In this document: positions 4,912 to 20,052 of the stretch, piece after piece
How the letters are laid out: each line of letters begins with the position of its first letter
Position numbering within the stretch: position 1 is the stretch's first letter
Source: Rhodobacterales bacterium HTCC2255
Lineage (GTDB): Bacteria > Pseudomonadota > Alphaproteobacteria > Rhodobacterales > Rhodobacteraceae
Direction of reading: 5' to 3'
Assembly (NCBI GenBank): GCA_000153745.1
Contig: DS022282.1
Span: 292,027 to 356,026, forward strand
Length of the DNA: 64,000 nt
Program-made: the position numbers and the translations under genes
The notes under the pieces: generated by a model
What the model saw: the letters and a program-made list of their open reading frames with translations, nothing else
Databases searched by the model: none
Told to the model about the DNA's origin: nothing

Positions 4912-5834
4912 AGTTCGCTTAAAAGAGGTGGATTAGCCCCCTTACGAGATACGGTTATAGAAGCTGCATTTATGCCATATTCCAAAGCTATTTTAATCTT
5001 CTCAATTGGTAAACTTTGAATTTGTTTTTTTGACAATAAATCTAATTGATTCAATTTAGCCAAAAAACCTGCATTAAAAGTATCACCAGCACCTACAGTA
5101 TCAATAACATTTACTTTTTTTGCAGGCAAACTGATTGGTTCTGTTTCGGGAATATATGCAGATACTCCATTTGCACCTTTTGTTAAAATTACAATCTTTG
5201 CACCTAATTGATGAAGACTTTTCACTTTTTCATCTAAACAACCATCAGAAATATCTAACCAATCCAAATCTTCATCTGAAACTTTTAATATATCACATAA
5301 AGAAATCATTTTTTTTAATCTCGTTCGATAGGTATTTTCATCATTTATAAAATTACTTCTAATATTTGGATCTAAAAATATAACTCTATTATTAGACTCT
5401 TGAATAAGTAATTTTTCATATGCGCTAGCAGCAGGTTCTGTGCATAAACTTATTCCACCAAAACATAATGTAGAGACAATTTTAGGTATATTTGGAAAAT
5501 CATTTAAACATATACTATTTCCAGCAGAACACTCATCGTAGAATGTATACTTTGCATGTCCATTTTGGATCGCAACAAATGCAAGAGTAGTTGGTCTAGG
5601 GTTTCTAATTAAATAATCTACGTTCACATTTGAATATATTAAATCACTTATCAACTTCTCACCAAAAAGGTCAGTGGACACACCAGAAAGCAAACCAACT
5701 GAAACGTTTAATCTTCCTAAAGCAATACTTGTATTGAAAATGGCACCACCTGTAAGAGGTGAATATAAAATTTCATTATCCTTAATTTCTATAGGAATCA
5801 TGTCTATTAAAGATTCACCACAACAAATTATCAT
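4908..5834 (-). CDS. PfkB-family carbohydrate kinase, probable fructokinase
   Basis: ATP-dependent sugar kinase of 308 residues. The N-terminal PfkB block is MIICCGESLIDMIP, the Gly-rich substrate block is LTGGAIFNTSIALGRL, and the C-terminal signature DTVGAGDTFNAGF carries the catalytic Asp and anion hole. It is the last gene of the polyol operon, 26 nt after the ABC ATPase. Downstream of mannitol and sorbitol dehydrogenases, which both make fructose, fructokinase (fructose to fructose-6-phosphate) is the natural role; other PfkB substrates cannot be excluded. It converges on and overlaps the LacI gene by 4 nt. Confidence 0.85.
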   Translation of the reverse strand: MIICCGESLIDMIPIEIKDNEILYSPLTGGAIFNTSIALGRLNVSVGLLSGVSTDLFGEKLISDLIYSNVNVDYLIRNPRPTTLAFVAIQNGHAKYTFYDECSAGNSICLNDFPNIPKIVSTLCFGGISLCTEPAASAYEKLLIQESNNRVIFLDPNIRSNFINDENTYRTRLKKMISLCDILKVSDEDLDWLDISDGCLDEKVKSLHQLGAKIVILTKGANGVSAYIPETEPISLPAKKVNVIDTVGAGDTFNAGFLAKLNQLDLLSKKQIQSLPIEKIKIALEYGINAASITVSRKGANPPLLSEL

Positions 5835-5860
5835 TTAAATACCCAACAAAACATTTAATA

Positions 5861-6895
5861 TTATATGCTATCACCATTACTACTATCAAAATAATGCACA
5901 AAGTCTTTATTTGCTTTGAAATATAGCTTTTCACCTTTTTTCTCAGTGGGTGAATTATTTAGTTTAGCAATAAACTCCATACCGTTGTCTGAAGTCATGT
6001 GTACTAATGCATATTCACCTAGATTTTCAACTAAGTCTAATTTTCCTGATATAATCGCATCTTTTTCCTTACATTCAATAAGATGTTCCGGGCGAATTCC
6101 AAGATCTATTTTTTTATCTTTTAATTTTGACAACACTGATTTTGATTTTTGTGGCAAATCCGTATTTGGAAAAATGTTCATTTTGGGACTTCCAATGAAT
6201 TGAGCAACAAATGAATTATTTGGCCTCTCATATAAATCCATAGGTGTTCCAACTTGTTCTATGTATCCATCTTTTAAAACAACAATTTTGTCAGCAAGTG
6301 TCATAGCTTCGACTTGATCGTGCGTAACATAAATCATTGTTGATCCCAATCTTTCATGCAGTCTAGCAATTTCAAGACGAGTTTGAACTCTGAGTGCTGC
6401 ATCGAGATTGGATAAAGGTTCATCAAATAAGAAAACCTCTGGATCCCTCACAATGGCCCTACCGATAGCTACTCGTTGCCTTTGACCTCCTGATAAGTTT
6501 TTTGGACTTCTGTCTAAATAATCTGTAATTTGAAGTATATCTGCTGCTTCTTTTACGCGAATATCAATTTCTTTTGGGTCAGTTTTAGCCTGCTTCAATC
6601 CGAATGACATATTTTGATATACGGTCATATGAGGATACAAAGCATAAGTCTGGAAAACCATTGCGACTCCACGTTTTGAAGCCGCAACATCATTTACAAT
6701 TTTTTCACCGATTTTTGCCGAACCACTGCTGATGTCTTCTAAACCAGCAATCATTCTTAAAAGTGTTGACTTACCACACCCAGATGGACCAACAAAGACT
6801 ACAAATTCTCCATCATCAATGTCTAAATCAACACCATGTATGACTTCAAGTTCTTCATATTTTTTACGCAAACCACGAAGTGTTAAACTGGCCAT
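5861..6895 (-). CDS. smoK: Polyol/sugar ABC transporter ATP-binding protein (SmoK/MalK/UgpC type)
   Basis: Cytoplasmic ATPase of a carbohydrate importer, 344 residues. Walker A GPSGCGKST lies near residue 37, the signature is LSGGQRQRVAIGRAIVRDP, Walker B is VFLFDEPLSNLD, and the H-loop is VTHDQVEAM. The C-terminal extension after about residue 240 is the regulatory OB-fold (TOBE) region seen in MalK-type ATPases (LGIRPEHL). A GGAG Shine-Dalgarno lies 6 nt before the ATG, inside the end of the dehydrogenase gene, which it overlaps by 13 nt. The gene order matches the Rhodobacter smoEFGK-smoS-mtlK polyol locus, except that smoK here follows mtlK and an AraC gene is inserted. Confidence 0.9.
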   Translation of the reverse strand: MASLTLRGLRKKYEELEVIHGVDLDIDDGEFVVFVGPSGCGKSTLLRMIAGLEDISSGSAKIGEKIVNDVAASKRGVAMVFQTYALYPHMTVYQNMSFGLKQAKTDPKEIDIRVKEAADILQITDYLDRSPKNLSGGQRQRVAIGRAIVRDPEVFLFDEPLSNLDAALRVQTRLEIARLHERLGSTMIYVTHDQVEAMTLADKIVVLKDGYIEQVGTPMDLYERPNNSFVAQFIGSPKMNIFPNTDLPQKSKSVLSKLKDKKIDLGIRPEHLIECKEKDAIISGKLDLVENLGEYALVHMTSDNGMEFIAKLNNSPTEKKGEKLYFKANKDFVHYFDSSNGDSI

Positions 6896-8304
6896 TTTTT
6901 CTCCATTTCAAAAATTTCATTACGCAGATTTATCGTAAAATCTGGATATTTATTCGGTATATCAGACCACAATTGTTGACAGGTTATAAACTCATCAGTT
7001 CCTATTATGGTCTCTAAAAATGCCCAAGAAGGTTCCACATATTTAAAATCGATTTTTCCTGCAGCCACGTGCAAGCAAAACTGATGCCAACTGGCTATAC
7101 TTTTAATAGAAAAATGCGGAACTATACCTTGTTGTAAGCAGCCTTCTAATGTTGGTCTTATAAATATTGGAAATTTAGCCATCCCATCAGCACAAATACG
7201 AGAAATCGTATCACCAATTGCTTTATTACAAAATCGCTCTTCTATTTTCGCTAAATAATCATTCTTTGAAAAAGGTACATCTAACAATAATGCTGGTAAA
7301 ACTTCATTAACCTGAAAGCATCTAAAGTGTTCTAATAATTGATGAGATCTCATTGCTTCATCAAATGTTATCATTTTTTCTAATGCAGCCATGTATGTTA
7401 ACGCTGTATGGCCACCATTTAAAACACGTATTTTTGTTTCTTCGTAAGGATCAATATCTTTTGTTATTGTTACACCAACTATATCTAATGCAGGTAAAGT
7501 TCCTAAAGATATATCTTGTAAAACCCATTGTGAAAAATCTTCGGCCATAATTGGAGAATAAATTTCATGTCCGATTAATGATGAGAGCTCTTCTTGCAAT
7601 AATATTGAAGTTTGTGGGGTAATTCTATCAACCATTGAACAAGGGAAATACGCATTTTTCTGAACCCAATCCAATACAAGTTGATCACCACAAGCTTTCA
7701 GGTAAGAAATCAAATTTTGTTTAAGCATTAATCCATTTTGGCGAATATTATCACAACATGCTATTGTAATAGGCTTTCCATGGGCCATAATACGTTTATT
7801 AATAGCATTTCTTAAATATCCATAAATAGTTTTAAGATTAGAATTATTTATTTCATCAATAATTGTTGGTTCATTTATATCTAATTGACCATATGCATTT
7901 GTATAGTATCCACTTTCAGTAACTGTTATTGTAACTAGGTGAACTGTTTCCACAGCAAGTAAATTTTGTGTGTTTTCAATATCAGTTGTCCAATCATAAA
8001 AACCAATATGTGATCTAACCATTCTAACAGAGTCATGGCCATCTGATGAATAAGATTTTATCAAATACCCACCATTCGCTTTGATTTCTTGAACTGTTTT
8101 TTCGAAATGAGCTGTCTCACTTTCTCGTAAATTAACAGCTGCTATGCCCCAACGTAAATCATTCGTTTTAGACATGTAATCATCCATATAAACAGCTTGG
8201 TGCGCTCTATGAAAAGCTCCAAAACCAACATGAACAATACCAATTTCACATTCATTTTTATTATAGTTTGTACTATGAATTTTTGGCAGAGAAATATTAT
8301 TCAT
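6883..8304 (-). CDS. mtlK: Mannitol dehydrogenase family protein (polyol:NAD oxidoreductase)
   Basis: Oxidises a hexitol such as D-mannitol (or D-arabinitol/sorbitol) to the ketose with NAD+. The 473-residue length fits long-chain polyol dehydrogenases. The N-terminal Rossmann region contains VHVGFGAFHRAHQAVYMDD, and the catalytic block KIRVLNGGHTALTYMA holds the family Lys/Asn/His residues. The start overlaps the AraC stop as ATGA (4 nt), and the 3' end overlaps smoK, so translation is probably coupled. Which polyol is used cannot be read from the sequence; mannitol is the family default. Confidence 0.93.
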   Translation of the reverse strand: MNNISLPKIHSTNYNKNECEIGIVHVGFGAFHRAHQAVYMDDYMSKTNDLRWGIAAVNLRESETAHFEKTVQEIKANGGYLIKSYSSDGHDSVRMVRSHIGFYDWTTDIENTQNLLAVETVHLVTITVTESGYYTNAYGQLDINEPTIIDEINNSNLKTIYGYLRNAINKRIMAHGKPITIACCDNIRQNGLMLKQNLISYLKACGDQLVLDWVQKNAYFPCSMVDRITPQTSILLQEELSSLIGHEIYSPIMAEDFSQWVLQDISLGTLPALDIVGVTITKDIDPYEETKIRVLNGGHTALTYMAALEKMITFDEAMRSHQLLEHFRCFQVNEVLPALLLDVPFSKNDYLAKIEERFCNKAIGDTISRICADGMAKFPIFIRPTLEGCLQQGIVPHFSIKSIASWHQFCLHVAAGKIDFKYVEPSWAFLETIIGTDEFITCQQLWSDIPNKYPDFTINLRNEIFEMEKKWPV

Positions 8305-9194
8305 AAAGCTGGATCCATCTTATCAGATAATTGTTTGCGAGCAGTTTCTCGATAAACAGATGGGGTCATTCCCTTAATCTTTAGAAAATGACGGTTAAAA
8401 TTAGCAACATTTTTAAAGCCTACATCAAAGCAAATAGATGTTACTTGATCATCTGAAGCATATAACATGCCACATGCTTGGCCTATCCTCACACGATTAA
8501 CAAACTCAACAAAACTATGCCCTGTAACACTTGAAAAATTTCTTCCAAAAGTGGTTAAAGACATTCCAGCCATTTCTGCCGCATCCACTGCATTTAAATC
8601 TACATCAAAATTTTCTAATATATGATCAATAATATTTCCAATGCGCGCATATTTACTATTACCATCTGCATTAACTAATTTTGTTTCTGATAACGTAACT
8701 TTTTCTGCATGTTCATTTAATCTCACCAAAAACCTAATAAATGCTAGGATCCGCTCTGGACCTGTATTATCTCTAATGGCTTCCATGTGACCACGAGCAA
8801 ATGTTGGATTAAATCCTTTGAACAAAATTCCTGATGCAGCTAAATCTAACATTTTTCTAATTCCACCAAATTCAGGAAAACCTTCAGCTAATTTTTCAAA
8901 ACTTTTTTGGCTAAATTGAACCAACATATCTCGAATTTCAATTTTTTCTGTTGATACACTATCAGTGACCCAATTATGTGGCAGGTTCGGTCCTGTTAGA
9001 AATAAACTACCAGGTTCAAAATTACCTATAAAATTACCAACAAATGCCTTGCCTCTTGTTTCAACAATTAGGTGCAATTCATATTCTTCATGTGCATGCC
9101 AGCGGCAAAGATCTGTTGGCCAACCATGTTCAAGATAACGGATAGATCTGTTTGAACGATCTACGACTTCAAACTGTGGGTGCATAATTGACAT
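8301..9194 (-). CDS. AraC-family transcriptional regulator embedded in the polyol operon
   Basis: A 297-residue regulator. The N-terminal cupin-like sensing domain (HAHEEYELHLIVETRGKAFV, FEPGSLFLTGPNLPHNW) binds a small molecule in relatives. The C-terminal double helix-turn-helix runs from about residue 185, with the second AraC motif SICFDVGFKNVANFNRHFLK. A GAGGTG Shine-Dalgarno lies 6 nt before the ATG and overlaps the SDR stop, which is 4 nt away. The position between smoS and mtlK implies it is made with the enzymes and activates the operon when polyol is present; this is inference. A likely target region is the stretch upstream of smoE (13185-13516). Confidence 0.92.
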   Translation of the reverse strand: MSIMHPQFEVVDRSNRSIRYLEHGWPTDLCRWHAHEEYELHLIVETRGKAFVGNFIGNFEPGSLFLTGPNLPHNWVTDSVSTEKIEIRDMLVQFSQKSFEKLAEGFPEFGGIRKMLDLAASGILFKGFNPTFARGHMEAIRDNTGPERILAFIRFLVRLNEHAEKVTLSETKLVNADGNSKYARIGNIIDHILENFDVDLNAVDAAEMAGMSLTTFGRNFSSVTGHSFVEFVNRVRIGQACGMLYASDDQVTSICFDVGFKNVANFNRHFLKIKGMTPSVYRETARKQLSDKMDPAL

Positions 9195-9198
9195 TAGT

Positions 9199-9957
9199 TC
9201 ACCTCAGTACATTTCCACCGTCGACACATATAGTCTGAGCGGTAATATATTCAGATTGATCACTTGCAAGGAAAACAGCCGCTCTTGCAACGTCCTTTGG
9301 TCTTCCCATAAAGCCTAGAGGTACGGCCTTCCCTACTTCACGTTTTTTTTGTCCAATTTCTTTTTTTTCAAATTTAGCAAATAGTTTATCAACATGATCC
9401 CACATTGGGGTATCTATTACTCCAGGACTGATCGCATTAACTCTTATTTTATTTGATGCCAAAGCAAGTGCAGCAGATTGAGTATAGCTTATAACTGCAG
9501 CTTTTGTAGCGCAATAATGCGCTACTAGAGCTTCTCCTCGGTGACCAGCCTGACTAGCAACATTAATTATAGATCCTGATTTTTCTTCTGCTATCATTGA
9601 TTTTGCACAGGCTTGCATAATTGCATAAAGAGCTCTGACATTTAACCCAAACAATTTATCAAAAGATTGCAAATTTGCATCAAGAATAGAACCCATATCA
9701 AATATGGCAGCATTATTAAATAAAACATCAGGACGAATTTCAGAAATCCATTCTAAACAAGATAATAGCTCTTTTTCTATCAACAAATCGAATTTCTTAT
9801 AATTGTTTGCTCCAGGTAATTTAATATCCTTATCTGTAGTGTAAACAATTGCACCTAGTTCTTTGAAGTGCTCGATTGTACTTTGACCAATTCCACCCGC
9901 AGCGCCAGTAACAAGACACACTTTACCAGTTAAATCGATGGATCCTGGAGAAAACAT
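9199..9957 (-). CDS. smoS: SDR-family sorbitol/L-iditol 2-dehydrogenase
   Basis: Short-chain dehydrogenase predicted to oxidise sorbitol to fructose with NAD+. I start it at the ATG at 9957 (MFSPGSIDLTGKVCLVTG, 252 residues), because the TAATG junction overlaps the stop of smoG by one nucleotide; the open frame to 10011 only adds residues inside smoG. The NAD motif is TGAAGGIG, the NNAA motif is present, and the catalytic Ser (NVASQAG) and Tyr-x3-Lys (YCATK) are intact. The C-terminus ITAQTICVDGGN closely resembles SmoS proteins of polyol operons. It lies between the permease and the AraC gene. Confidence 0.88.
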   Translation of the reverse strand: MFSPGSIDLTGKVCLVTGAAGGIGQSTIEHFKELGAIVYTTDKDIKLPGANNYKKFDLLIEKELLSCLEWISEIRPDVLFNNAAIFDMGSILDANLQSFDKLFGLNVRALYAIMQACAKSMIAEEKSGSIINVASQAGHRGEALVAHYCATKAAVISYTQSAALALASNKIRVNAISPGVIDTPMWDHVDKLFAKFEKKEIGQKKREVGKAVPLGFMGRPKDVARAAVFLASDQSEYITAQTICVDGGNVLR

Positions 9958-10793
9958 TATTTTACCGCTCCAAAAGTTAACCCTTGAACTAGCTGCTTTT
10001 GACAAAACCATCCAAGTATAATTATAGGACCAACCGCCGCGGTTGAAACAGCGGAAAGACGACCAAAAAATAAACCCTCAGGTGCCCTATTCCCTTCAAT
10101 CAGCTTAGACAATGTAGCTGCATCAATTGTAGTTAATCGAACGGTCCAATAAGCTTCATTCCAACAAAAAATAAAACATAACAATGCAGTAGATGCGACA
10201 CCGCCCCAAGCTAATGGAATTAATATATCTTTTATTTCCCCCCAAGTACTTACACCATCCATTTTTCCAGCTTCAATAATTTCTTTTGGTATTTCTTTGA
10301 AATAAGTAAATAACATCCAAATAACTATCGGAAGGTTAATCAAACAAAGTACAATTATTACTAAAAAGTGAGTATCAAAGATATTTAAAAAATTCTTGGT
10401 AAGAAATGTCATTGGATATAGAACAGCCGCTGCAGGCAACATTTTAGTTGAAAGCATCCAAACGAGTACATCTTTCGTCCTACGAGTAGGATTGAATGCC
10501 ATAGAATACGCTGCAGGTATTCCAACAAATAATGCCAATGTTGTAGCAAAAGTAGACGTGATGACGGAGTTTATAGCAAAGCGCCAATAATCATAATTAT
10601 CAGTCATATTTAAATAATTATCAAAAGTAGGTGTGAAGAAAAATAAAAATTCCGGTTTTACTGCATCAGCATCAGTTTTGAAGCTTGTAAAAATCATCCA
10701 AAATATTGGAAAGAAAAATAATAATGCTACTAACCATGCAAGAATTGGTCTGTAAAAATTTCCAAAATTTGATTTATCAGTTACAATAGACAT
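9957..10793 (-). CDS. smoG: Polyol ABC transporter permease (SmoG/MalG type)
   Basis: Inner-membrane subunit of the polyol importer. I take the ATG at 10793 (MSIVTDKSNFGNFYRP, 278 residues), preceded by GAGGA at 8-nt spacing; the longer frame to 10808 begins at a TTG. The first membrane segment is ILAWLVALLFFFPIFWMIF, and further hydrophobic segments follow in the MalG pattern of six. The coupling EAA loop is EIIEAGKMDGVSTWGEIKDI, which contacts the ATPase. It begins 11 nt after smoF ends and ends in a one-base overlap with smoS. Confidence 0.92.
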   Translation of the reverse strand: MSIVTDKSNFGNFYRPILAWLVALLFFFPIFWMIFTSFKTDADAVKPEFLFFFTPTFDNYLNMTDNYDYWRFAINSVITSTFATTLALFVGIPAAYSMAFNPTRRTKDVLVWMLSTKMLPAAAVLYPMTFLTKNFLNIFDTHFLVIIVLCLINLPIVIWMLFTYFKEIPKEIIEAGKMDGVSTWGEIKDILIPLAWGGVASTALLCFIFCWNEAYWTVRLTTIDAATLSKLIEGNRAPEGLFFGRLSAVSTAAVGPIIILGWFCQKQLVQGLTFGAVK

Positions 10794-10804
10794 ACATTTA
10801 TTCC

Positions 10805-11743
10805 TCAATCAACTAAGTTTTTACCAACCATGCGCAGTAAAAAAATTGCTATGATATTTGCTAATATTACTGCAAAAATTCCAGTCGCACTTGCAGCACC
10901 AATATTATTATTTGCAAATTCTCCAATTAGATATGGCAGATTTTTATTTCCATTCCCCCTGCTGACAATTTCTATTTCAGCATAAAGTGATAAATGGAAA
11001 ATTGATTGTATCATCACAACTATGGCAATAGGTCTGGCTAGATGAGGCAATGTCATATATCTGAATTGCGCCCAAGAAGTTGCACCATCCAGTACAGCAG
11101 CTTCTTTCTGCTGCTGATCTTCAGACTGTAAAGAAGTCATGAATATTAATACTGCAAAAGGTGTCCATTGCCATGTCACCATAATTATAACAGCATAAGC
11201 AGATGTTTGCGTTGCTCTAAATGATATAGGTGTTAATTCTGGCCATAAGGAGAAAAAACTTCCTAATACTGGAAGATCCTTGAGATCTTTTACTAAATTA
11301 TTGAGAGCTTCAACAGCAATTCCATTCAAACCAAGTACTGGATCAAGTATCATATTAATCCATAATACACCACTTACGGCCGGCATTACGAAAAAAGGTG
11401 ATATCAAAAGAACACGTACAATTCCTCTTCCAGGAAAAGTTTTATTTATTAATACAGCAATTGATAGACCTAATATAACTGTAAAAAATAATATGCCGCC
11501 TACAATGAAAACACTGTTTTGAACTGCAAACCAGAAATCTTTTGCATCTAATACATAGTTGTAATTTCCAAAACCACGCCAATTACTTAAACTTGGCGAT
11601 GTCCACTCAGGTCTATTTAAACTATTTAATACATAACGAATGAAAGAAAAATATAACGTCATTGATAGTGGGACAAGCATCCAAACTAAAAGTAACAATA
11701 CTGCTGGAGCTTGAAGTAAGCGCGGTAAAGTTCTGTTAGACAT
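10805..11743 (-). CDS. smoF: Polyol ABC transporter permease (SmoF/MalF type)
   Basis: Partner permease of smoG, 312 residues. The N-terminal membrane segment is APAVLLLLVWMLVPLSMTLY and the EAA coupling loop is KEAAVLDGATSWAQFRYMTL. An AAGGA Shine-Dalgarno lies about 11 nt before the ATG. It follows the binding-protein gene after a 160-nt gap that contains two strong inverted repeats (11771-11837 and 11858-11887). These probably reduce or stabilise transcripts so that the binding protein is made in excess over the membrane parts. Confidence 0.92.
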   Translation of the reverse strand: MSNRTLPRLLQAPAVLLLLVWMLVPLSMTLYFSFIRYVLNSLNRPEWTSPSLSNWRGFGNYNYVLDAKDFWFAVQNSVFIVGGILFFTVILGLSIAVLINKTFPGRGIVRVLLISPFFVMPAVSGVLWINMILDPVLGLNGIAVEALNNLVKDLKDLPVLGSFFSLWPELTPISFRATQTSAYAVIIMVTWQWTPFAVLIFMTSLQSEDQQQKEAAVLDGATSWAQFRYMTLPHLARPIAIVVMIQSIFHLSLYAEIEIVSRGNGNKNLPYLIGEFANNNIGAASATGIFAVILANIIAIFLLRMVGKNLVD

Positions 11744-11770
11744 TATTCGATAATCCTTTTTAGACTTAAT

Positions 11771-11837
11771 CGTTAAGTATTATATTTTTAATAAATTTAA
11801 AATCATTTATGATTTTTAAAAATATAATATTTTAACG
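11771..11837. repeat. Long AT-rich inverted repeat between smoE and smoF
   Basis: The left arm (11771-11790, beginning CGTTAAGTATTATA) is complementary to the right arm (11817-11837, ending TATTTTAACG) with one bulged base, across a 26-nt loop that contains its own symmetric AAATCAT/ATGATTT pair. It lies within 30 nt of the smoF start and could form a large hairpin in the mRNA or act as a binding site. Confidence 0.7.
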
Positions 11838-11857
11838 ATATTGAGGTATTCTTAATT

Positions 11858-11887
11858 AGAAGGGCCCAGATTAATCTGGGCCCTTCT
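11858..11887 (-). terminator. Perfect 30-bp palindrome just after smoE (attenuator or mRNA-stabilising hairpin)
   Basis: Fully symmetric, with arms AGAAGGGCCCAGATT and its complement, starting 16 nt after the smoE stop on the coding strand. The GC-rich stem would be very stable. No long U-run follows on the minus strand, so it is more likely a 3'-end stabiliser or a partial terminator that separates highly expressed smoE from the permease genes. Confidence 0.75.
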
Positions 11888-11903
11888 AAAATTGATTTAG
11901 CTA

Positions 11904-13184
11904 TTAGTATCCAGCTTCATTCATAATAGATACAGCAGCAGCTTGTGCAGCAGCTAATGCATCTTCTACTGATTTTGCGCCAGATAAAGCAGCAGCCATT
12001 TCTTGTGCTACAGCTGAACCAACTTCTGGAAACTCAGGGATCGCAGCGAACTGAACACCAACGTATGGCTTCAGATCTGTAGCTGCAGGTGCTGCAGATT
12101 CGATTGCGGCCATTTCAGCTGCGGCGAAGCCAGCAACTGCTTGGAATTCAGGATATGCATACGTAGAGGCACGTGTACCTGTTGGAACAGATCCCCAACC
12201 GAAATCTGGGTGATCTGCTACAGCTTGGATGTATGCTTTTGAAGTTGCCCATTCGATAAATGCGTGTGCAGCTTCTGAGTTTGGTGAACCTGTAGGAACC
12301 GCCATTGCCCATGCCCACAACCAGTTAGCACCTACTGGGTTACCAGCATTTGGTGATTGTGCGTAAGCTACACCATCAACTGTCAAGAAAGATGCCGCAA
12401 TAGTTGCGTCAATCCACATGCCACATTTGCCTTCGTTATACAAAGCCAGGATTTCGTTGAATGAGTTACCTTCTGAACCTGGAGGTCCGTAGTTACCTAA
12501 TAAATCAACATAGAAATTAATTGCTTCATTCCATGCAGCTGAATCCAAAGTTGGCTTCATATCAGCGTCAAACCAAGCACCACCAAAAGAGTTAACTACA
12601 GTTGTGATGAACGCCATGTTGTCACCCCAACCTGGCTTACCACGTAAACATGCACCATATACACCATTGTCTGGGTCGTGCATTGCCATAGCAGCACCTT
12701 TGATATTAGCCCATGAATCGTTATCACGAACTGAAATACCAGCAGCATCAGTTAGGTCTTTTCTGTACATAACCATTGATGATTCACCATAAAATGGCGC
12801 TGCATACAATGTGCCATCGTGTGACAAACCATTGCGCATTGCTGGCAACATATCGTCAACATCATAGTCTGCACCAAAGTTTAATGGTTCGATCCAGCCA
12901 GCTGCACCCCAGATTGGCGCTTCCTGCATACCAATATTGATAATGTCATATTGGCCACCACCAGTTGCAGTATCTGAAGTTACTTGCTCACGTAGAACAC
13001 CTTCTTCAAGAGAAACCCAATTTAAGTTTACACCTGTTTCAGCAGTATAAGCTTCAGCAACTTTCTGCATGTTAATCATGTGACCATTGTTCACAATCGC
13101 AATAGTCAGATCATCTGCCATTGCGAATGATGCACCAGTAACGCTTAGCGTTAATCCTAGTACAGTATTACGTAAAGATTTCAT
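11904..13184 (-). CDS. smoE: Polyol ABC transporter periplasmic substrate-binding protein (SmoE type)
   Basis: Captures polyols in the periplasm. The protein has 426 residues with a Sec signal peptide (MKSLRNTVLGLTLSVTGASF then AMADD; cleavage near residues 22-24). The mature part is a family-1 solute-binding protein (ADDLTIAIVNNGHMINMQKV, YDIINIGMQEAPIWGAAGWI). A GGAGGAAA Shine-Dalgarno lies just before the ATG, the strongest in the operon. It is the first gene of the nine-kilobase polyol operon. Its codon usage is visibly richer in G and C than its neighbours, as expected for a highly expressed binding protein. Mannitol or sorbitol specificity is inferred from the two dehydrogenases downstream. 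Confidence 0.93.
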   Translation of the reverse strand: MKSLRNTVLGLTLSVTGASFAMADDLTIAIVNNGHMINMQKVAEAYTAETGVNLNWVSLEEGVLREQVTSDTATGGGQYDIINIGMQEAPIWGAAGWIEPLNFGADYDVDDMLPAMRNGLSHDGTLYAAPFYGESSMVMYRKDLTDAAGISVRDNDSWANIKGAAMAMHDPDNGVYGACLRGKPGWGDNMAFITTVVNSFGGAWFDADMKPTLDSAAWNEAINFYVDLLGNYGPPGSEGNSFNEILALYNEGKCGMWIDATIAASFLTVDGVAYAQSPNAGNPVGANWLWAWAMAVPTGSPNSEAAHAFIEWATSKAYIQAVADHPDFGWGSVPTGTRASTYAYPEFQAVAGFAAAEMAAIESAAPAATDLKPYVGVQFAAIPEFPEVGSAVAQEMAAALSGAKSVEDALAAAQAAAVSIMNEAGY

Positions 13185-13516
13185 ATTTTCCTCCCAGGGA
13201 ATTTTGCATCAAAAAAATCAGTTCAGAGAGAACTAAGTGAACTTAACTTAATTTATAAATTTTAACCGCGCCTATACTGATACGCCGAATATATGTACAA
13301 ATAATTCACTTTAATTTAAATTATATGAAATATTTGTAGATATATGAAGTAAAAAAATATACTGAATTTGTAAAAAAACCCTTATTAAATATACGTTTAA
13401 CTAAATAATTTTCTTATCTAACATTAATAAAAGTGTTTTTTTTGTATATTTATAATTATTTATTTTTACAATTATCTATACGATTTTAAGAATATAATGA
13501 TTCTCATTTAAAAATA
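13185..13516. promoter_or_regulatory. Polyol operon control region (332 bp, no gene)
   Basis: A gene-free AT-rich stretch between smoE and the hydrolase gene. It must hold the promoter of the polyol operon. An inverted repeat AGTTC-n5-GAACT at 13220-13234 lies about 36-50 nt upstream of the smoE start, followed by a further GTGAACTTAACTT stretch; either could be a regulator site. The 13360-13500 part is very AT-rich, with no clear terminator for the upstream operon. Confidence 0.55.
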
Positions 13517-14242
13517 TTATGAATTTTTTAAAAAATCTTTAACTATTTTATTAAAAATTTCAGGCTTCTCAAGATGAGCTGCATGAGCGCAACCTGCGAT
13601 TACTGAAAGGTTAGAATTTCTAATTTTTTCCCATAATATCTCAATTTGGGGCCATAAATATGTTCTATCTCCATCGCCCCAAAGGATAAGTGTTTTATTT
13701 TCTATATGCTTTAAATACTTCTCACCTGACCATTCACTCATTGCATCTAATCCTGCTAAAATCGCTTCTATAGAGCTATATTTAGCTATACGCGCACATG
13801 CTTCATGAGCAGGAGATTTCTCATAGTCTAGAAACCAAGTGGATGAAATTCTAAAGGCTGTTGAGCTTGCACCATCTTCTTGGGCGCGAATTTTACTTTG
13901 AGCGATTGTCTCAAAGCGGCCAGGCAAAACGCCTACTGATCCAGTACCATATAATATTAACTTATCAATATTATTATAGTCTGAACGAACCATTTCCTGC
14001 ACTATCATTCCTCCCATTGAATGACCCAGTAAATGATATTTTTTGATATTACGCCTTCTTAACTCAGATATTATCCAATCTGAAAAACCAATTATTTCAT
14101 TTATAACTGGAAGATGATTATTTGCACCAAATCCAGGCAAATCAATTAAAATTATTTCAAAGTCCTTTGAAAGGTCTTTTATTTGATTTTCCCACTGTGC
14201 ACTTCCACCCATGAACCCATGGACTAAAACGAGTGGTATCAT
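13517..14242 (-). CDS. Alpha/beta hydrolase, last gene of the cuyA-proXVW-like operon
   Basis: A 241-residue cytoplasmic hydrolase of unknown substrate. The oxyanion block is LVHGFMGGSAQW, the nucleophile elbow is GHSMGG, the acid is probably Asp in WGDGDR, and the His is in CAHAAHLEKP, so the catalytic triad is intact. It resembles MhpC/BioH-like esterases and C-C hydrolases. Its ATG overlaps the permease stop by 4 nt, so it is translationally coupled to the transporter. This suggests it acts on an imported ester, amide or similar conjugate, but nothing in the sequence names the substrate. Confidence 0.9.
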   Translation of the reverse strand: MIPLVLVHGFMGGSAQWENQIKDLSKDFEIILIDLPGFGANNHLPVINEIIGFSDWIISELRRRNIKKYHLLGHSMGGMIVQEMVRSDYNNIDKLILYGTGSVGVLPGRFETIAQSKIRAQEDGASSTAFRISSTWFLDYEKSPAHEACARIAKYSSIEAILAGLDAMSEWSGEKYLKHIENKTLILWGDGDRTYLWPQIEILWEKIRNSNLSVIAGCAHAAHLEKPEIFNKIVKDFLKNS

Positions 14243-15777
14243 TTACGTTTTCCTTGAACAATTCGATCTAAAATCATTGCACAGAACAAAATGGAAAATC
14301 CTGCAAGTATCCCTTGACCCACATTAGCATATTGTAACGCTTCTAATACATCTTCGCCTAATCCTTTGGCACCTATTAAAGATGCAACAACAACCATAGC
14401 CAATGAAAGCATTATAGTTTGATTAATCCCAGCTCGAATTGAGGGGCTCGCTAGCGGCAAGTCAACTTTTGTTAATAGATACCATTTATTTGCACCAAAT
14501 GAAATTGCTGCCTCCCTTACACTGTCTGGAACTCCTCTTAGTCCAAGTACAGTCAACCTCACTACCGGTGTTCCACCAAAAATCATAGTAGTAACAACGG
14601 CAGCTGGCTTTCCTGTTCCAAAAAACGCAATAACAGGTATCATAAAAACAAATGCAGGCATTGTTTGCATAAAATCCATAATAGGTTGAATAAATGAATA
14701 AAACCGCCTTCTGCGGGCACAGAACATTCCAAGTGGAATGCCAATGACTATTGATAAGCATGCTGCAGTACCTAATAAAGCTAATGTAGTCATGGCTTTT
14801 TCCCAAAATCCCAAAAGACCCATATATGATAAAAATGCACCAGACCAAAGTGCTGTTCTTATGCCAGCAGTCAACCATGTTAAAACGACAATTAAACTTG
14901 CAATAACAATCCAAGGTGTTGTTACAAATGCCAGTTCTAATGCATCTAATATCAAACGAATTCCATATGTAATAAAATCAAAAACCACTTCACCATTTGC
15001 AACACAAAATGAGAAAAATGCTTCAACTTTTGCAATACTAAATAATCTGTATTCTGGGTTTGTTGGGAAATTGCTCAAAATAACAATTTTGCCAGGGAAA
15101 CTATAATGAAATACAGCAGCAGCAATTATCAAAATTACAAATAATGCACTAAAAATTATATTAGAAACTGGAAGACTTGAGCGAATTGTTCTGTCTGATA
15201 ACCAATCTGAAAAGCGTGCTTCCAATGCCCAATTAGCGACAATAGCCTGAATACATTTTGAAATAATCAAAATACTTAGTCCTATGAGAGCAATTGTTAC
15301 ACCCTGCTCTGACAAAGCCACTGCTTCTTCTCTTATGCCACCGATCGCAGCTTCAAGTGCTTCAACGGTACGTTTATAAACATCAACTTTACTGGAGCCA
15401 CTTTCAAGTGCAGCCGCAAGTTGCTGACGTCGCAAATCTAATGTATTTTCGATTGAAGCAATTCTTGCAAAAGCTTCTGCAGCCAAATCTCCAAATAATC
15501 CACGAAAAATTTGAACAAATGCAAGCATTTCAAGTATCAAAAATGGCAAAGCCCAAGACCATAGGCCGCGTGCACCATACCAAATTGGACCAAATATACC
15601 TGCCATTATATTTAATGTTGGAGTAAAGTTGGCGTTCTCTCCAATGTTATCAAATTGCGAAATGTAGTAATCAGGATTTGTCCTTACAAATTCTCTAATA
15701 TTGTCACGCCGCTCTGCTGCGTACGCTAATGCTGCTTCAGAATCTTTTGCATCAAGTGGATTTTCATTATTATTCAT
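14239..15777 (-). CDS. Quaternary-amine-type ABC transporter permease (ProW/OpuAB family) with long N-terminal extension
   Basis: Inner-membrane permease of 512 residues, compared with about 350 for E. coli ProW. The C-terminal half is the usual BPD_transp_1 domain (ALLGTAACLSIVIGIPLGMF, EAAISFGANKWYLLTKVDLP as the coupling loop, MVVVASLIGAKGLGEDVL). The N-terminal 240 residues contain hydrophobic segments (GPIWYGARGLWSWALPFLIL, ALIGLSILIISKCIQAIVAN) separated by a charged helical stretch at about 105-150 that could be a coiled coil. It overlaps the ATPase gene upstream and the hydrolase downstream by 4 nt each. Glycine-betaine-like substrates are the family norm, but the linked cuyA makes a sulfonated or thiol amino acid possible. 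Confidence 0.9.
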   Translation of the reverse strand: MNNNENPLDAKDSEAALAYAAERRDNIREFVRTNPDYYISQFDNIGENANFTPTLNIMAGIFGPIWYGARGLWSWALPFLILEMLAFVQIFRGLFGDLAAEAFARIASIENTLDLRRQQLAAALESGSSKVDVYKRTVEALEAAIGGIREEAVALSEQGVTIALIGLSILIISKCIQAIVANWALEARFSDWLSDRTIRSSLPVSNIIFSALFVILIIAAAVFHYSFPGKIVILSNFPTNPEYRLFSIAKVEAFFSFCVANGEVVFDFITYGIRLILDALELAFVTTPWIVIASLIVVLTWLTAGIRTALWSGAFLSYMGLLGFWEKAMTTLALLGTAACLSIVIGIPLGMFCARRRRFYSFIQPIMDFMQTMPAFVFMIPVIAFFGTGKPAAVVTTMIFGGTPVVRLTVLGLRGVPDSVREAAISFGANKWYLLTKVDLPLASPSIRAGINQTIMLSLAMVVVASLIGAKGLGEDVLEALQYANVGQGILAGFSILFCAMILDRIVQGKRK

Positions 15778-16847
15778 GACATTTCAGTTCCTTCTACAAC
15801 TGTTCGCAGAATATCAGAACGCGTTATTACTCCAGCTGCTTCGCCAGCTCTTTCAACAAGGATATGATCTTCATGATCTATTGCTAAAGAAATCAAAGTA
15901 CTTAGCGTCTCACTTTCTTCAACTCGGGGCATATCAGTAGATAGTGGTCCATTTTTTTGTATATATTGCTCTATTGGTTGCATTACTGCATGAGCATGAA
16001 CAACCTTTAGCCGAGATATTCCCGCAACAAAATCAGCAACGTAATCGTCTGCAGGATTCATAACAATATCTTCAGCAGTTCCAGTTTGAACAAGCCGACC
16101 ATCCCTCATAATTGCTATCCTATCTCCAATACGAACGGCTTCATCAAGGTCATGAGTTATAAATACTGTGGTTTTTTTCAGAATTTTAGAAAGTCTGATG
16201 AACTCATCCTGTAACTGCCGACGTATTAATGGGTCTAGAGCACTAAAAGGCTCATCCATCAACAAAACATCTGGATTGGCAGCAAGTGCCCTTGCCAAGC
16301 CAACTCGTTGTTGCATTCCCCCAGACAATTCGTGGGCAAACTTTGAACCCCAAGCGCCAAGTTCAACAATATCTAAAATTGCTGCTGCTTGCCGCATCCG
16401 TTCATTTTTACTAATTTTTCTAATTTCTAGTGGCATTGCGACATTATCTAAAACTGATCTATGTGGCATGAGTGCAAAATTTTGGAAAACCATTCCAATT
16501 TTTTGGTTTCTAAATTTTTGTAAATCTTGCGTACCTAAGCCCATAACATCGGTACCCTCAATTAATATTTGTCCGTCTGTTGGCTCTAATAATCGATTAA
16601 AATGCCTAACTAATGTTGACTTTCCACTACCTGAGAGGCCCATGATACAAAATATCTCACCCCTATTTACAGATAAACTTACATCAGCAACACCTACTAC
16701 TGCATTATATTTATTTAAAACTTCAGCTTTACTAAGTCCATCATCTCGTATTGCACGCAATGCCTCTTCTGGACGATAACCAAAAATTTTCCATACATTG
16801 GAAATTTCAATTACTTTATCGTTATTCATAATTTGATGGTGCTCCAT
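15774..16847 (-). CDS. Quaternary-amine-type ABC transporter ATP-binding protein (ProV/OpuAA family)
   Basis: ATPase of 357 residues driving the importer. The ProV-specific N-terminus ISNVWKIFGYRPEEALRAI is followed by Walker A GLSGSGKST, signature LSGGMQQRVGLARAL, Walker B VLLMDEPFSALDP and H-loop ITHDLDEAVRI. The C-terminal tail after about residue 285 is CBS-like (LISLAIDHEDHILVERAGEA and VITRSDILR), which in OpuA proteins senses ionic strength or nucleotides. The stop overlaps the permease start as ATGA. The operon is proX-proV-proW-like in order. Confidence 0.92.
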   Translation of the reverse strand: MEHHQIMNNDKVIEISNVWKIFGYRPEEALRAIRDDGLSKAEVLNKYNAVVGVADVSLSVNRGEIFCIMGLSGSGKSTLVRHFNRLLEPTDGQILIEGTDVMGLGTQDLQKFRNQKIGMVFQNFALMPHRSVLDNVAMPLEIRKISKNERMRQAAAILDIVELGAWGSKFAHELSGGMQQRVGLARALAANPDVLLMDEPFSALDPLIRRQLQDEFIRLSKILKKTTVFITHDLDEAVRIGDRIAIMRDGRLVQTGTAEDIVMNPADDYVADFVAGISRLKVVHAHAVMQPIEQYIQKNGPLSTDMPRVEESETLSTLISLAIDHEDHILVERAGEAAGVITRSDILRTVVEGTEMS

Positions 16848-16878
16848 AACATGGTCTTATACCGATGTTTATTTGTTT

Positions 16879-16904
16879 GATGGCTCCAGCTCACTGGAAC
16901 CATC
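16879..16904 (-). terminator. Hairpin between the proX-like and proV-like genes
   Basis: An 11-bp stem (GATGGCTCCAG against CTGGAACCATC, one mismatch) with a 4-nt loop, 27 nt after the binding-protein stop on the minus strand. T-residues follow only on the plus-strand side. In the direction of transcription it is therefore more likely a stabilising hairpin than a full terminator, and it parallels the hairpin after smoE. Confidence 0.6.
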
Positions 16905-16930
16905 TTTTTTTAAATCAATCTTTTTAAATT

Positions 16931-17890
16931 TTAAAGACCCAACCAAGCATCAACACGGTCAGGGTTTGCTTCTACCCACTCACGTGCAAATTCTGCAGGA
17001 TCTCGGCCATTACCACTAATTTCAAAAGCAAAATTACTCACATCATCAGCAGTAACTGAAAAACGCTCGAAGAATTCAGCAATTGCAGGTGAACGATCCG
17101 GCAAAGACTTTGAGTAAGCGATTTGAACCTGCTTCAATGCATCTTTTGTGCTCACGCTAGATTTTTCATACCAATCAGCATCATCTGAAGGTTGAACCAT
17201 TGTATATTTAGCAGCATCATAAGTTGGTTCACTTAACATTACTACGTCAAACATAAACCAAACCGCATGAGGCTTATAACAATAGAATGCATAACCTTCA
17301 CCTTTTGCAATTGAATCTTTAATTCTTGCAGTTTTTACACTTTCTTCTGCTCTAATAGGCTCAATAAAGTCTAATAATCCATAATCACGAACTTTTACTT
17401 CATTTACATTAGCTGATGCCCAACCTGGAGCACCGATCCACATTTCACCTTTTCCATTGCCATCACTATCCATTAGCGCTGCAACGTCAGGGCGACCTAA
17501 ATCAGCAATATCAGTGATGTTATTAGCTTCTGCAAAGTCTTTAGATACACAAAAGCCTTGGTTGCCTTCATATGGTTGTTGGTTCAATACAACAGAACCT
17601 GCACCATCTACATATTTCTTTGTGAAACTTTCTTGATTTGGCAACCAAACATCAGGATGTACATCAATATCGCCTTTTCCTTGGTCCATACCTTGGAAAA
17701 TTGTTGCATTATTTCCTGGTACATAATCAACTGTACCACCAATTCGCATTTCAACCACAGCACCCAATAAGTGAGCCATTGCTTGTGCACCAGTCCATGA
17801 TGGTACGCCAATTTTCACATCTTCAGCAATAGCAGGAACGCTCATTGCAGCAAGAAGTGATGCTGTTATTAGTGATTTTTTAAGTAACAT
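16931..17890 (-). CDS. Glycine-betaine-type substrate-binding protein (ProX/OpuAC family)
   Basis: Periplasmic binding protein of 319 residues with a clear Sec signal peptide (LLKKSLITASLLAAMSVPAI, cleavage after AIA). The mature protein is an OpuAC domain (VKIGVPSWTGAQAMAHLLGA, GKGDIDVHPDVWLPN). Trp and Tyr residues at PSWTG, DVWLPN, GAPGWAS and CYKPHAVWF could form the aromatic cage that holds a cationic head group. It lies 41 nt downstream of the cuyA-like gene and 83 nt upstream of the ATPase gene. The ligand may be a betaine, or a zwitterionic sulfonate such as cysteate or taurine given the neighbouring lyase; the sequence alone does not settle this. Confidence 0.9.
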   Translation of the reverse strand: MLLKKSLITASLLAAMSVPAIAEDVKIGVPSWTGAQAMAHLLGAVVEMRIGGTVDYVPGNNATIFQGMDQGKGDIDVHPDVWLPNQESFTKKYVDGAGSVVLNQQPYEGNQGFCVSKDFAEANNITDIADLGRPDVAALMDSDGNGKGEMWIGAPGWASANVNEVKVRDYGLLDFIEPIRAEESVKTARIKDSIAKGEGYAFYCYKPHAVWFMFDVVMLSEPTYDAAKYTMVQPSDDADWYEKSSVSTKDALKQVQIAYSKSLPDRSPAIAEFFERFSVTADDVSNFAFEISGNGRDPAEFAREWVEANPDRVDAWLGL

Positions 17891-17931
17891 ATTCTTTTTC
17901 TCCTAGTTAAGTTTATAATTTAGTTAGTGTA

Positions 17932-18993
17932 TTAATTTGCGTACCCAGGTAGCTCAAACGTTTCTGGATATCCAAATAGTGCGGCGCTCCCGCCAGTATG
18001 CAAGAACACAACATTATCCATTCCTGCAAAATAACCTTTTTTAATTTGATCTATTAGGCCATCTAAACCTTTGCCCGAATATACAGGGTCAAAAAGTAAA
18101 CCCTCCGATTGTGCTAATAATTTAACTGCTTTTATCATACCGTCAGTTGGCAACCCGTAGCCAGCACCAACATAATCACAAATAGCACGCACCTTGTCGC
18201 GTTCTATTTTTATACCAGTATCTAAATAATCAGCTGTTTTTTGCGCTAAATCAAAAACCATTTGTTCTTGTTTGTCTTTGGGTGCTCTTACACCAATACC
18301 TAATAAATGAATATCACTTTGAATAGCGGCCAAGCCTGCAACTAACCCCGCTTGAGTTCCAGCACTGCCAGTTGCATGTACAAGTGCATCTACTTTTAAT
18401 CCTATTTCTGATGCTTGCTCGGTTAACTCTCTGGCGCAATTTACATAGCCCAAAGCACCAATAGCATTAGATCCCCCACCAGGAATTATGTATGGATTCT
18501 TTCCTTTTTCAATTAAACTCTCAGCAAAATCTTGCATTTCTGCGTTCATATCTGTTCCACCACTTCGTTTTGAAACTGAAGCACCATGCAAACGATCGAG
18601 TAAAACGTTTCCATTTAAAATATAACTATGATCATTAGACCCAGTTCTATCTTCTAATAAAATATGACATTCCATACCAAGCTTAGCTGCGGCTGCCGTT
18701 GTTTGTCTTGCGTGATTAGATTGTGTCGCACCTTGAGTGATAATAGTATCAGCACCCTTTGATTGAGCATCAGCCATTAAAAATTCAAGTTTACGTGTTT
18801 TATTTCCTCCAGATGATAAACCAGTACAGTCATCACGTTTAACCCACAGTCGCGGTCCACCTAATATTTCACTTAATCTATCCATTGGCTCTAATGGAGT
18901 TGGCAAATGACCAAGTCTAACTTTGGGAAATTTTGCTAAGGTTAAGGATAAATCCTTACACAAACTTTGCTCCATTTCGGGTGAGAATGGCAT
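17932..18993 (-). CDS. cuyA: PLP-dependent L-cysteate sulfo-lyase / D-cysteine desulfhydrase family enzyme
   Basis: Fold-II PLP enzyme of the ACC deaminase/D-cysteine desulfhydrase family. It removes sulfite from L-cysteate, or sulfide from cysteine, leaving pyruvate and ammonium. I start it at the ATG at 18993 ([11 protein letters not shown], 353 residues); the open frame to 19110 would put an odd hydrophobic leader in front and fill the divergent promoter region. The PLP Lys is in [25 protein letters not shown] is the substrate loop, and [14 protein letters not shown] binds the phosphate. Blocks such as [14 protein letters not shown] and [13 protein letters not shown] resemble, from memory, CuyA of Ruegeria more than DcyD of enterobacteria. 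It heads the transporter operon and is divergent from a LysR gene. Confidence 0.75.
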
Positions 18994-19140: not shown

Positions 19141-20052
19141 ATGGATATGAATTGGCTAGATGATGTATTAATTCTACTAGAAGAAGGAAATATGACCCGC
19201 GCAGCCGCACGGAGAAACATAACACAACCCGCCTTTTCTAGACGTATAAGAAGCTTTGAAGATTGGCTTGGAGTAAATGTACTAGATCGCGGTACTAATA
19301 AAATAAACATAAGCCCTTCCCTGCATTCGAATGAAACTGAAATCAGAGCCCTGGTTGCGAGAATTAATGATCTCAAGGGTAAATTAACACATTACGACCC
19401 TACAAGCACAATAGTATCAATCGCAGCTCAACATTCTCCAATATTTACAGCATTTCCAGACATGTCCTTGCATGCTAAAAAACACTACCCATCACTTAAA
19501 TTTCGATTAAGAGCGGCCAACCTAAGGGATTGTGTAACTATGTTTCTAAGAGGCGATACCAGTATGCTCTTATGCTACGAATCCAACCATGTTGGATCAC
19601 TTCCTTTTGGAGATACAATAAAACGTGAGCTTTGGGGAAATGATTACCTAGTTCCAGTAGTTGGAGGAAAATTAAGGTTTTCAGTAAAAGACAATGGATT
19701 AATACCCATAGATACGCCCTCTATAGCCTATCCTGAAGACAGTTATTTTGGGCAAGTCTTGAGTGCAAATAAACGAACCTTTGGCACTCCAAATTTTAGT
19801 AAATCTGCTGTTTGTGAGACAGCATTTTCTAATGGTATTAAAGAGATGGTTACAAAAGGGATTGGGGTTGGCTGGTTGCCAATAAGTATGATTCATAGAG
19901 AATTAGAAAACGGTCAACTTATTTCTCTATCAAATTCTTATGGAAAAGAATTATTAGAAGTAGCTGTTTATGCAGATACAAAAAATGAAATGTCGTTATC
20001 TTTACTTGATATTTGGGGTTTCAAACAGCGTACATCTAATAAATTAATTTAA
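19141..20052 (+). CDS. LysR-family regulator divergent from the cuyA operon
   Basis: A 303-residue LTTR. The winged helix-turn-helix is at residues 1-60 (TRAAARRNITQPAFSRRIRS), followed by a weakly conserved effector domain from about residue 90. A GGAGGAG Shine-Dalgarno lies 8 nt before the ATG. The 147-bp divergent region toward cuyA holds a CCATAC-n5-GTATTGG near-inverted repeat (about 19107-19123), a plausible binding site. By LysR habit it would activate the divergent operon in response to its substrate or product; this is inference. The DNA-binding helix is orthodox, but the rest of the protein is divergent. Confidence 0.9.
   Translation: MDMNWLDDVLILLEEGNMTRAAARRNITQPAFSRRIRSFEDWLGVNVLDRGTNKINISPSLHSNETEIRALVARINDLKGKLTHYDPTSTIVSIAAQHSPIFTAFPDMSLHAKKHYPSLKFRLRAANLRDCVTMFLRGDTSMLLCYESNHVGSLPFGDTIKRELWGNDYLVPVVGGKLRFSVKDNGLIPIDTPSIAYPEDSYFGQVLSANKRTFGTPNFSKSAVCETAFSNGIKEMVTKGIGVGWLPISMIHRELENGQLISLSNSYGKELLEVAVYADTKNEMSLSLLDIWGFKQRTSNKLI

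What the first reader, a model, noticed from the sequence alone, without database searches (positions are those of the whole stretch)
13517..18993. cuyA-type lyase, betaine-type ABC importer and alpha/beta hydrolase in one operon with a divergent LysR
Gene order cuyA-proX-proV-proW-hydrolase with 4-nt overlaps implies one pathway. A CuyA-like enzyme makes pyruvate, ammonium and sulfite (or sulfide). A ProXVW-type importer next to it suggests uptake of a zwitterionic organosulfur compound rather than an osmolyte. The hydrolase suggests that the imported molecule is a conjugate needing cleavage first. No sulfite exporter or sulfite dehydrogenase is in the window. I know of no described pathway with this set.
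Basis: inference. Interest (0 to 1): 0.65.

Follow-up and report, generated by a model that had tools for sequence, protein, structure and literature searches.

The report
Import-hydrolyse-desulfonate operon feeding CuyA
A marine bacterium carries a compact operon that probably imports an unidentified sulfur-containing molecule, cuts it with a hydrolase and splits the sulfonate off with CuyA; the same hydrolase recurs with CuyA and different importers in many related bacteria, which points to an unrecognised nutrient of marine bacteria.

Summary
Two of four junctions overlap by 4 nt; the others have gaps of 41 and 83 nt. The association is not chance. Of 244 sampled genomes (all one family) 33 have this importer clade (64% identity or more); all 33 have the hydrolase beside it and encode CuyA (76 of 244 overall). 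The hydrolase also directly follows DctM in 13 TRAP-importer loci, 6 of them next to CuyA, and lies in tauABC-type cuyA operons on Paracoccus and Shinella plasmids. Of 47 genomes with the hydrolase 45 have CuyA. Of 76 CuyA genomes 48 have the cysteate racemase CuyB; 26 of the other 28 have this hydrolase. CuyB was found in 0 of 22 genomes with CuyA inside the importer-hydrolase operon and in 10 of 11 with it outside. Best reading: the hydrolase frees CuyA's substrate (cysteate, perhaps the D form) from an imported compound. That compound is unknown, ligand and activity are untested, and my searches of an open-access library found no description of this module.

The parts
17932..18993 (-). cuyA: PLP-dependent cysteate sulfo-lyase (the open frame extends to 19110; start uncertain)
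   Evidence: NF052482 534 bits > 450; own-type relatives 75-83% identical in the same operon
16931..17890 (-). OpuAC-family substrate-binding protein (SBP) of the ABC importer
   Evidence: PF04069 164.7 bits; clade of 33 in 244 genomes; W32, W82, W157 invariant in 15 of 15 aligned
15774..16847 (-). ABC importer ATPase (ProV-type)
   Evidence: TIGR01186 344.9 bits > 326.6
14239..15777 (-). ABC importer permease (ProW-type), 4-nt overlap with both neighbours
   Evidence: PF00528 88.2 bits; gaps
13517..14242 (-). alpha/beta hydrolase (HYD); likely triad Ser75-Asp190-His220
   Evidence: PF00561 87 bits; S75 and H220 invariant, D190 in at least 90% of 23 aligned; AlphaFold2 mean pLDDT 93.3
19141..20052 (+). 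divergent LysR-type regulator, likely regulator of the operon (inference)
   Evidence: HTH_1 and LysR_substrate; a 50-65% identical LysR match in 13 of 14 own-type operon loci of the unnamed set
16848..16930 (-). 83-nt gap between SBP and ATPase genes with a stable hairpin
   Evidence: -23.6 kcal/mol, shuffles -9.47 +/- 2.63, z -5.37, 0 of 200 shuffles as low

Best explanation
The operon is a dedicated catabolic module. The ABC importer takes up a small zwitterionic compound. The alpha/beta hydrolase hydrolyses it in the cytoplasm and so releases cysteate or a close derivative. CuyA then eliminates sulfite to give pyruvate, ammonium and sulfite; the divergent LysR is the likely regulator. Because CuyA operons of this kind occur in genomes in which no cysteate racemase CuyB was found, the hydrolase product is probably already the enantiomer that CuyA uses (D-cysteate, if this CuyA shares the published preference). 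Shown: gene content, conservation, linkage and co-occurrence. Inferred: uptake, hydrolysis as the step before CuyA, stereochemistry. Unknown: the imported compound and the bond that is cut.
For: (1) Importer clade (64% or more) in 33 of 244 genomes; hydrolase beside it in 33 of 33 (directly after the permease in 29, ahead of the SBP in 4); CuyA (E<1e-100) in the genome in 33 of 33 against 43 of the other 211. (2) Hydrolase homologues (E<=1e-40) in 47 genomes, 45 with CuyA, against 31 of the other 197. (3) The hydrolase directly follows DctM (gap 43-59 nt) in 13 TRAP loci, 6 of them with CuyA in the fetched stretch. Two Phaeobacter plasmids repeat the TRAP-hydrolase arrangement beside CuyA; on Paracoccus and Shinella plasmids the hydrolase lies in a cuyA-degT-cuyB-tauABC-hisD-hydrolase-yeiH operon (CuyA and CuyB models passed). 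(4) On a tree of 74 CuyA sequences the 22 inside ABC operons fall in two groups (15 and 7 rows); well-supported branches force at least 2 changes. (5) Of 76 CuyA genomes 48 have CuyB (E<=1e-40) and 26 of the 28 without it have the hydrolase (Fisher p 2.7e-6). CuyB is in 0 of 22 genomes with CuyA inside the ABC operon and in 10 of 11 with it outside; the contrast repeats within 4 of 4 genera that hold both states. (6) The best-scoring solved relative of one linked TRAP binding protein is an isethionate (sulfonate) binder, weakly (66.4 bits).
Against: No activity or ligand data. The aromatic cage of the SBP fits a quaternary or tertiary amine better than free cysteate (inference). In the Paracoccus and Shinella operons the hydrolase coexists with CuyB and a HisD-like dehydrogenase, and 19 of 76 CuyA genomes have both CuyB and hydrolase, so it is not simply a substitute for CuyB. 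Own-type CuyA also occurs with an amino-acid-type ABC importer and no hydrolase beside it (L128, L129, L166; of these genomes only G134 lacks the hydrolase altogether). G134 and G021 have CuyA with neither CuyB nor hydrolase. Seven of 13 TRAP-hydrolase loci and 7 of 32 fetched ABC-hydrolase loci have no CuyA in the stretch; one of those TRAP genomes (G141) and G034 have hydrolase homologues and no CuyA. Asp190 is not kept in the Shinella protein. The fold comparison does not narrow the chemistry: esterases, lactonases and others tie. Genomes are related, so Fisher values overstate independence.
Confidence: 0.5

Rival explanations
1. The imported substrate is cysteate itself (either enantiomer), and the hydrolase is an accessory, for example hydrolysing the 2-aminoacrylate intermediate as RutD was proposed to do for 3-aminoacrylate (recalled), or repairing a by-product.
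For: RutD is among the family hits (69.8 bits, cut-off 238.5) and among the fold matches (3v48, Z 29.7). CuyA-type beta-eliminases make aminoacrylate (recalled).
Against: The hydrolase is not a general companion of CuyA: 29 of 76 CuyA genomes have CuyB and no hydrolase. It stays with the importer even when CuyA is not in the stretch: 6 of 28 loci of the 79%-or-more clade. RidA-family genes, which handle such enamines (recalled), are annotated beside two of the loci.
Confidence: 0.22
2. The CuyA of these operons acts on another beta-substituted amino acid, for example a thiol- or sulfonium-bearing D-amino acid released by the hydrolase, not on cysteate.
For: CuyA lies in the D-cysteine desulfhydrase family (the D-cysteine desulfhydrase chain 7ysk is its best solved match, 420 bits). 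Both operonic CuyA groups differ from the CuyB-linked ones at 332 (F to L) and 349 (A to L or M) (that these lie near the active-site loop is recalled). The SBP cage suits a cationic head group.
Against: The window CuyA passes the CuyA equivalog cut-off and none of the D-cysteine desulfhydrase equivalogs. CuyZ/YeiH-like exporter genes sit beside CuyA in 5 of 6 CuyA-containing TRAP-hydrolase loci and on two Phaeobacter plasmids.
Confidence: 0.15
3. An osmolyte importer lies next to unrelated catabolic genes by chance.
For: The importer subunits belong to the ProXVW superfamily.
Against: The order is conserved in the named set (hydrolase in 71 of 72 loci with room downstream, cuyA in 60 of 71 with room upstream) and in the unnamed set, and CuyA joined such operons more than once.
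Confidence: 0.03

Closest known systems
CuyA/CuyB cysteate degradation (cuyA-cuyZ of Ruegeria pomeroyi; CuyB racemase)
   Same: CuyA passes the same family model as the R. pomeroyi enzyme (534 and 553 bits); LysR gene divergent in both; expected products pyruvate, ammonium and sulfite.
   Different: No CuyB over the cut-off and no PF03601 exporter in this genome; an importer and a hydrolase are built into the operon.
R. pomeroyi cysteate transporter cuyTUVW (SPO3040-3043; PMC10130141, passages seen)
   Same: Dedicated uptake for the CuyA pathway.
   Different: An experimentally identified cysteate importer; here a ProXVW-type importer whose operon also carries a hydrolase. I did not compare the two by sequence.
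ProXVW / ChoXWV / TmoXVW importers
   Same: OpuAC-family SBP, ProV-type ATPase, ProW-type permease, aromatic-cage positions kept.
   Different: Below the ProX, ProV, ProW and choline-importer cut-offs; the solved TmoX (4xz6; the name TmoX is recalled) is not among the matches of P0002 at E<=0.001; linked to a hydrolase and CuyA.
MenH/BphD/PcaD/RutD group of alpha/beta hydrolases
   Same: Fold and Ser-Asp-His positions.
   Different: Below every curated NCBIfam cut-off listed (best MenH 100 vs 208.55); arginines 109, 119, 131 and 193 invariant in 23 aligned (109, 119 and 131 also across importer types) suit an anionic substrate (inference).

Membership tests
CuyA (cysteate sulfo-lyase) | Scores over the curated CuyA model | tested here: met
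   534 bits vs 450
CuyA (cysteate sulfo-lyase) | Releases sulfite from cysteate | not testable with these tools
   needs an enzyme assay
CuyA/CuyB pathway | Cysteate racemase CuyB in the genome | tested here: not met
   best match 34.6 bits, cut-off 190
ProXVW glycine betaine importer | ProX, ProV and ProW equivalog cut-offs | tested here: not met
   97.1 vs 215; 329.1 vs 444; 198.3 vs 439
Choline importer ChoXWV | TIGR03414/03415/03416 cut-offs | tested here: not met
   43.7 vs 379.05; 370.8 vs 483.75; 244.6 vs 363
OpuAC superfamily SBP | Pfam OpuAC gathering score and aromatic-cage residues | tested here: met
   164.7 vs 21.2; W157 aligns with W140 and Y205 with W188 of 1r9l; that these two form part of the ProX cage is recalled
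MenH / RutD / PcaD | Curated family cut-off | tested here: not met
   100 vs 208.55; 69.8 vs 238.5; 71.2 vs 255.85
Alpha/beta hydrolase | Fold and nucleophile-acid-histidine positions | tested here: met
   pLDDT 93.3; Z about 30 to many members; S75, D190, H220

The most novel reading that the evidence does not exclude
The module degrades a so far unrecognised, widespread marine D-cysteate conjugate (zwitterionic, sulfonated). The hydrolase delivers D-cysteate straight to CuyA, which replaces racemisation by CuyB; three unrelated importer types (ProXVW-type ABC, TRAP, TauABC-type ABC) have been coupled to it.
Probability: 0.28. Interest if true: 0.75.

Novelty: new variant of a known kind. Interest (0 to 1): 0.62.

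Why it matters
Sulfonates made by phytoplankton are a currency between algae and bacteria (PMC8703288, PMC11382572, passages), and many substrates and importers lack a name. A hydrolase found in about a fifth of the sampled genomes (47 of 244), almost always with CuyA, with exchangeable importers and often where the racemase is missing, implies a specific substrate that is not identified. R. pomeroyi carries the TRAP version, so its arrayed mutant library (PMC10130141) might test it; whether it holds these mutants I did not check.

Tried and rejected
Structure of the SBP: AlphaFold2 gave mean pLDDT 45.1, so it was not used. Fold search of the hydrolase: the top rows are near-ties among esterases, an enol-lactonase, strigolactone receptors, BioH, haloperoxidases and RutD; no chemistry follows. 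PDB search of one linked TRAP binding protein: nothing at 1e-20; best at 2.3e-17 an isethionate binder.

Considered and dropped: the hydrolase as a universal CuyA helper (29 of 76 CuyA genomes have CuyB and no hydrolase). The HisD-like gene beside CuyA as a cysteinolate dehydrogenase: a tree of 21 rows does not separate it from the genome's own HisD-like gene in an HpsNOP-like cluster, so this stays open. Neighbourhood maps from a home-made ORF picker miss some genes; counts rest on tblastn, except the amino-acid-importer, DegT, ~780-aa and agmatinase-like neighbours quoted. In its component list L128 and L143 carry the 'CUYB?' label; tblastn shows no CuyB in L143.

Sampling: of 13 listed importers at 46-53% I fetched 7, of 23 at 33-41% I fetched 20; not every CuyA of the sample is in the tree.

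Literature: searches and 97 of the open-access library gave no description that I recognised of a CuyA-linked hydrolase or of a ProXVW-type importer beside CuyA. Papers: PMC10130141 abstract, outline and passages; PMC11382572, PMC8703288, PMC8027193, PMC9870897, PMC10675870, PMC4334477 and PMC11131964 passages only; others in listings only. SPOA0283-0288 for the R. pomeroyi TRAP-hydrolase locus were my guess from gene spacing; the search found no paper.
Full report
What is there. On the minus strand of the window lie, in order of transcription, cuyA (17932-18993, open to 19110), an OpuAC-type binding protein (16931-17890), a ProV-type ATPase (15774-16847), a ProW-type permease (14239-15777) and an alpha/beta hydrolase (13517-14242); a LysR gene (19141-20052) is divergent. 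Gaps are 41, 83, -4 and -4 nt; the 83-nt gap holds a stable hairpin (z -5.37). CuyA passes the curated CuyA model (534 bits, cut-off 450). The importer subunits belong to the ProXVW superfamily but pass no curated glycine betaine or choline importer equivalog; the hydrolase passes no NCBIfam cut-off. The genome (2.3 Mb, 2 contigs, 99.75% complete) has no CuyB over the cut-off (34.6 vs 190 bits), 8 TauE-family matches, no PF03601 match and a HisD-like dehydrogenase 66% identical to one that lies beside CuyA elsewhere.

Importer and hydrolase. In 244 genomes of the order, all listed as the same family, the binding protein has 33 members at 64% identity or more, own included. I fetched stretches around 59 binding-protein homologues and one CuyA contig end (60 regions) and mapped the operon proteins by tblastn (recounted). 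In the 28 loci at 79% or more, binding protein, ATPase, permease and hydrolase are contiguous in 28 of 28, and a cuyA lies in the stretch in 22 of 28. In the 4 loci at 64-67% the hydrolase is in 4 of 4, ahead of the binding protein, and cuyA is in 3 of 4. Of the 27 more distant importers fetched none has the hydrolase, and 5 have cuyA. Six of the 7 fetched at about 46-52% stand beside a ~780-aa protein; the one tested scores 1071.8 on the TMAO demethylase model (cut-off 1100). In 80 named loci (the best 80 of 370; Rhodobacterales, with Roseibium/Labrenzia and an uncultured Hoeflea; some are the same genomes as in the unnamed set) the hydrolase is present in 71 of 72 with at least 3.9 kb downstream (L172 is the miss) and cuyA in 60 of 71 with at least 4.3 kb upstream. 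A MAG named Rhodobacteraceae bacterium Water_Bin34 has the whole operon at 91-100% (L168). None of the 5 other sampled members of the window's genus has the importer clade, CuyA at E<1e-100 or the hydrolase.

The hydrolase travels. A reverse search with the hydrolase (E<=1e-40) gave 48 places in 47 genomes. Thirty-three are the ABC loci. G161 shows hydrolase and permease at one contig end while its CuyA sits at another. Thirteen follow DctM of a DctP-DctQ-DctM TRAP set by 43-59 nt. One (G034) has no such neighbour. Six of the 13 TRAP sets lie next to LysR and CuyA. Of 14 plasmid records with the hydrolase I opened six: R. pomeroyi (TRAP-hydrolase, CuyA about 131 kb away on the megaplasmid), two Phaeobacter (TRAP-hydrolase beside LysR genes, CuyA and a sulfate-exporter-family gene), Paracoccus and Shinella (cuyA-degT-cuyB-tauABC-hisD-hydrolase-yeiH) and Mesorhizobium (same order up to hisD, hydrolase match partial and unannotated). 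The CuyA and CuyB names there were checked with the curated models (Mesorhizobium CuyA not tested). So the hydrolase is coupled to three importer types.

CuyA and CuyB. CuyA (E<1e-100) is in 76 of 244 genomes and CuyB in 50 of 244. All 33 importer genomes and 45 of 47 hydrolase genomes have CuyA; the two without are G034 (unlinked hydrolase) and G141 (hydrolase only 36% identical). Of the 76 CuyA genomes, 19 have CuyB and hydrolase, 29 CuyB only, 26 hydrolase only, 2 neither. CuyB is in 0 of 22 genomes in which CuyA is inside the ABC operon and in 10 of 11 in which it is not (G198 is the exception). For TRAP loci: CuyB in 2 of 6 genomes with CuyA adjacent, and in 6 of 7 of the rest (G141, without CuyA, is the seventh). 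On a tree of 74 CuyA sequences from the fetched loci the operonic ones fall in two groups (15 and 7 rows), and the TRAP-linked six in a third, mixed one. The published view is that CuyB interconverts L- and D-cysteate and that D-cysteate is the preferred CuyA substrate (PMC11382572, passage). Taken together, CuyA in this sample nearly always comes with either a racemase or this hydrolase.

How it probably works. The binding protein keeps aromatic residues at cage positions of ProX, so the ligand probably has a positively charged nitrogen (inference). The window hydrolase has an intact catalytic triad and arginines at 109, 119 and 131 that are invariant in the alignments, which suits an anionic substrate (inference). 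The reading is: import of a small zwitterionic sulfonate derivative, hydrolysis to cysteate, and sulfite elimination by CuyA. Cysteinolic acid, a widely distributed algal solute (PMC8703288, passages), is an attractive relative (its D form is recalled), but turning it into cysteate is an oxidation, so the hydrolase alone cannot do it.

Limits. All evidence is comparative. Relatedness inflates the Fisher values, though each of the four genera that hold both states shows the same CuyB contrast. Substrate, bond cut and stereochemistry are untested. The library holds open-access papers only, and two primary CuyA papers were not held.

Noticed in passing
L113, L115, L116, L120, L151, L159; Paracoccus, Shinella and Mesorhizobium plasmids (L273, L274, L278): A DegT/DnrJ-family aminotransferase-like gene follows cuyA and precedes the racemase (Pfam DegT 194 bits for L120). 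PMC11382572 (passage) says the sulfopyruvate aminotransferase gene of the CuyA pathway is unknown in R. pomeroyi; this is a candidate for that role elsewhere.
   Followed up: partly
L120, about 6030-15086: A distant ProXVW-type importer (36% identical SBP) lies between cuyB and a HisD/HpsN-like plus CuyZ-like pair in a cuyA-degT-cuyB operon, so this importer family may also carry other C3 sulfonates.
   Followed up: partly
L106-L112, L114, L118: Other members of the same importer family (about 37-42% identical) stand next to agmatinase-like genes (the one tested scores 172.5 on the agmatinase subfamily, cut-off 302), which suggests guanidino compounds as ligands.
   Followed up: no
L100-L105: Importers about 50% identical stand beside a ~780-aa gene; the one tested is close to TMAO demethylase (1071.8, cut-off 1100), yet the solved 4xz6 (TmoX, name recalled) matches its binding protein only weakly (E 0.00027).
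   Followed up: no
window 16848-16930: A stable hairpin lies between the binding-protein and ATPase genes (-23.6 kcal/mol, z -5.37), as is common where the binding protein is made in excess of the other subunits (recalled).
   Followed up: partly
window 4908-13184: Directly downstream of the hydrolase on the same strand is what looks by eye like a polyol uptake and oxidation operon (sugar-type ABC importer, short-chain and mannitol-type dehydrogenases, sugar kinase); no family search was run.
   Followed up: no
G000:C1:665822-667105 (L270): The genome has a HisD-like gene followed by an SDR and, by eye, a zinc alcohol dehydrogenase-like gene, like hpsNOP for dihydroxypropanesulfonate.
   Followed up: partly
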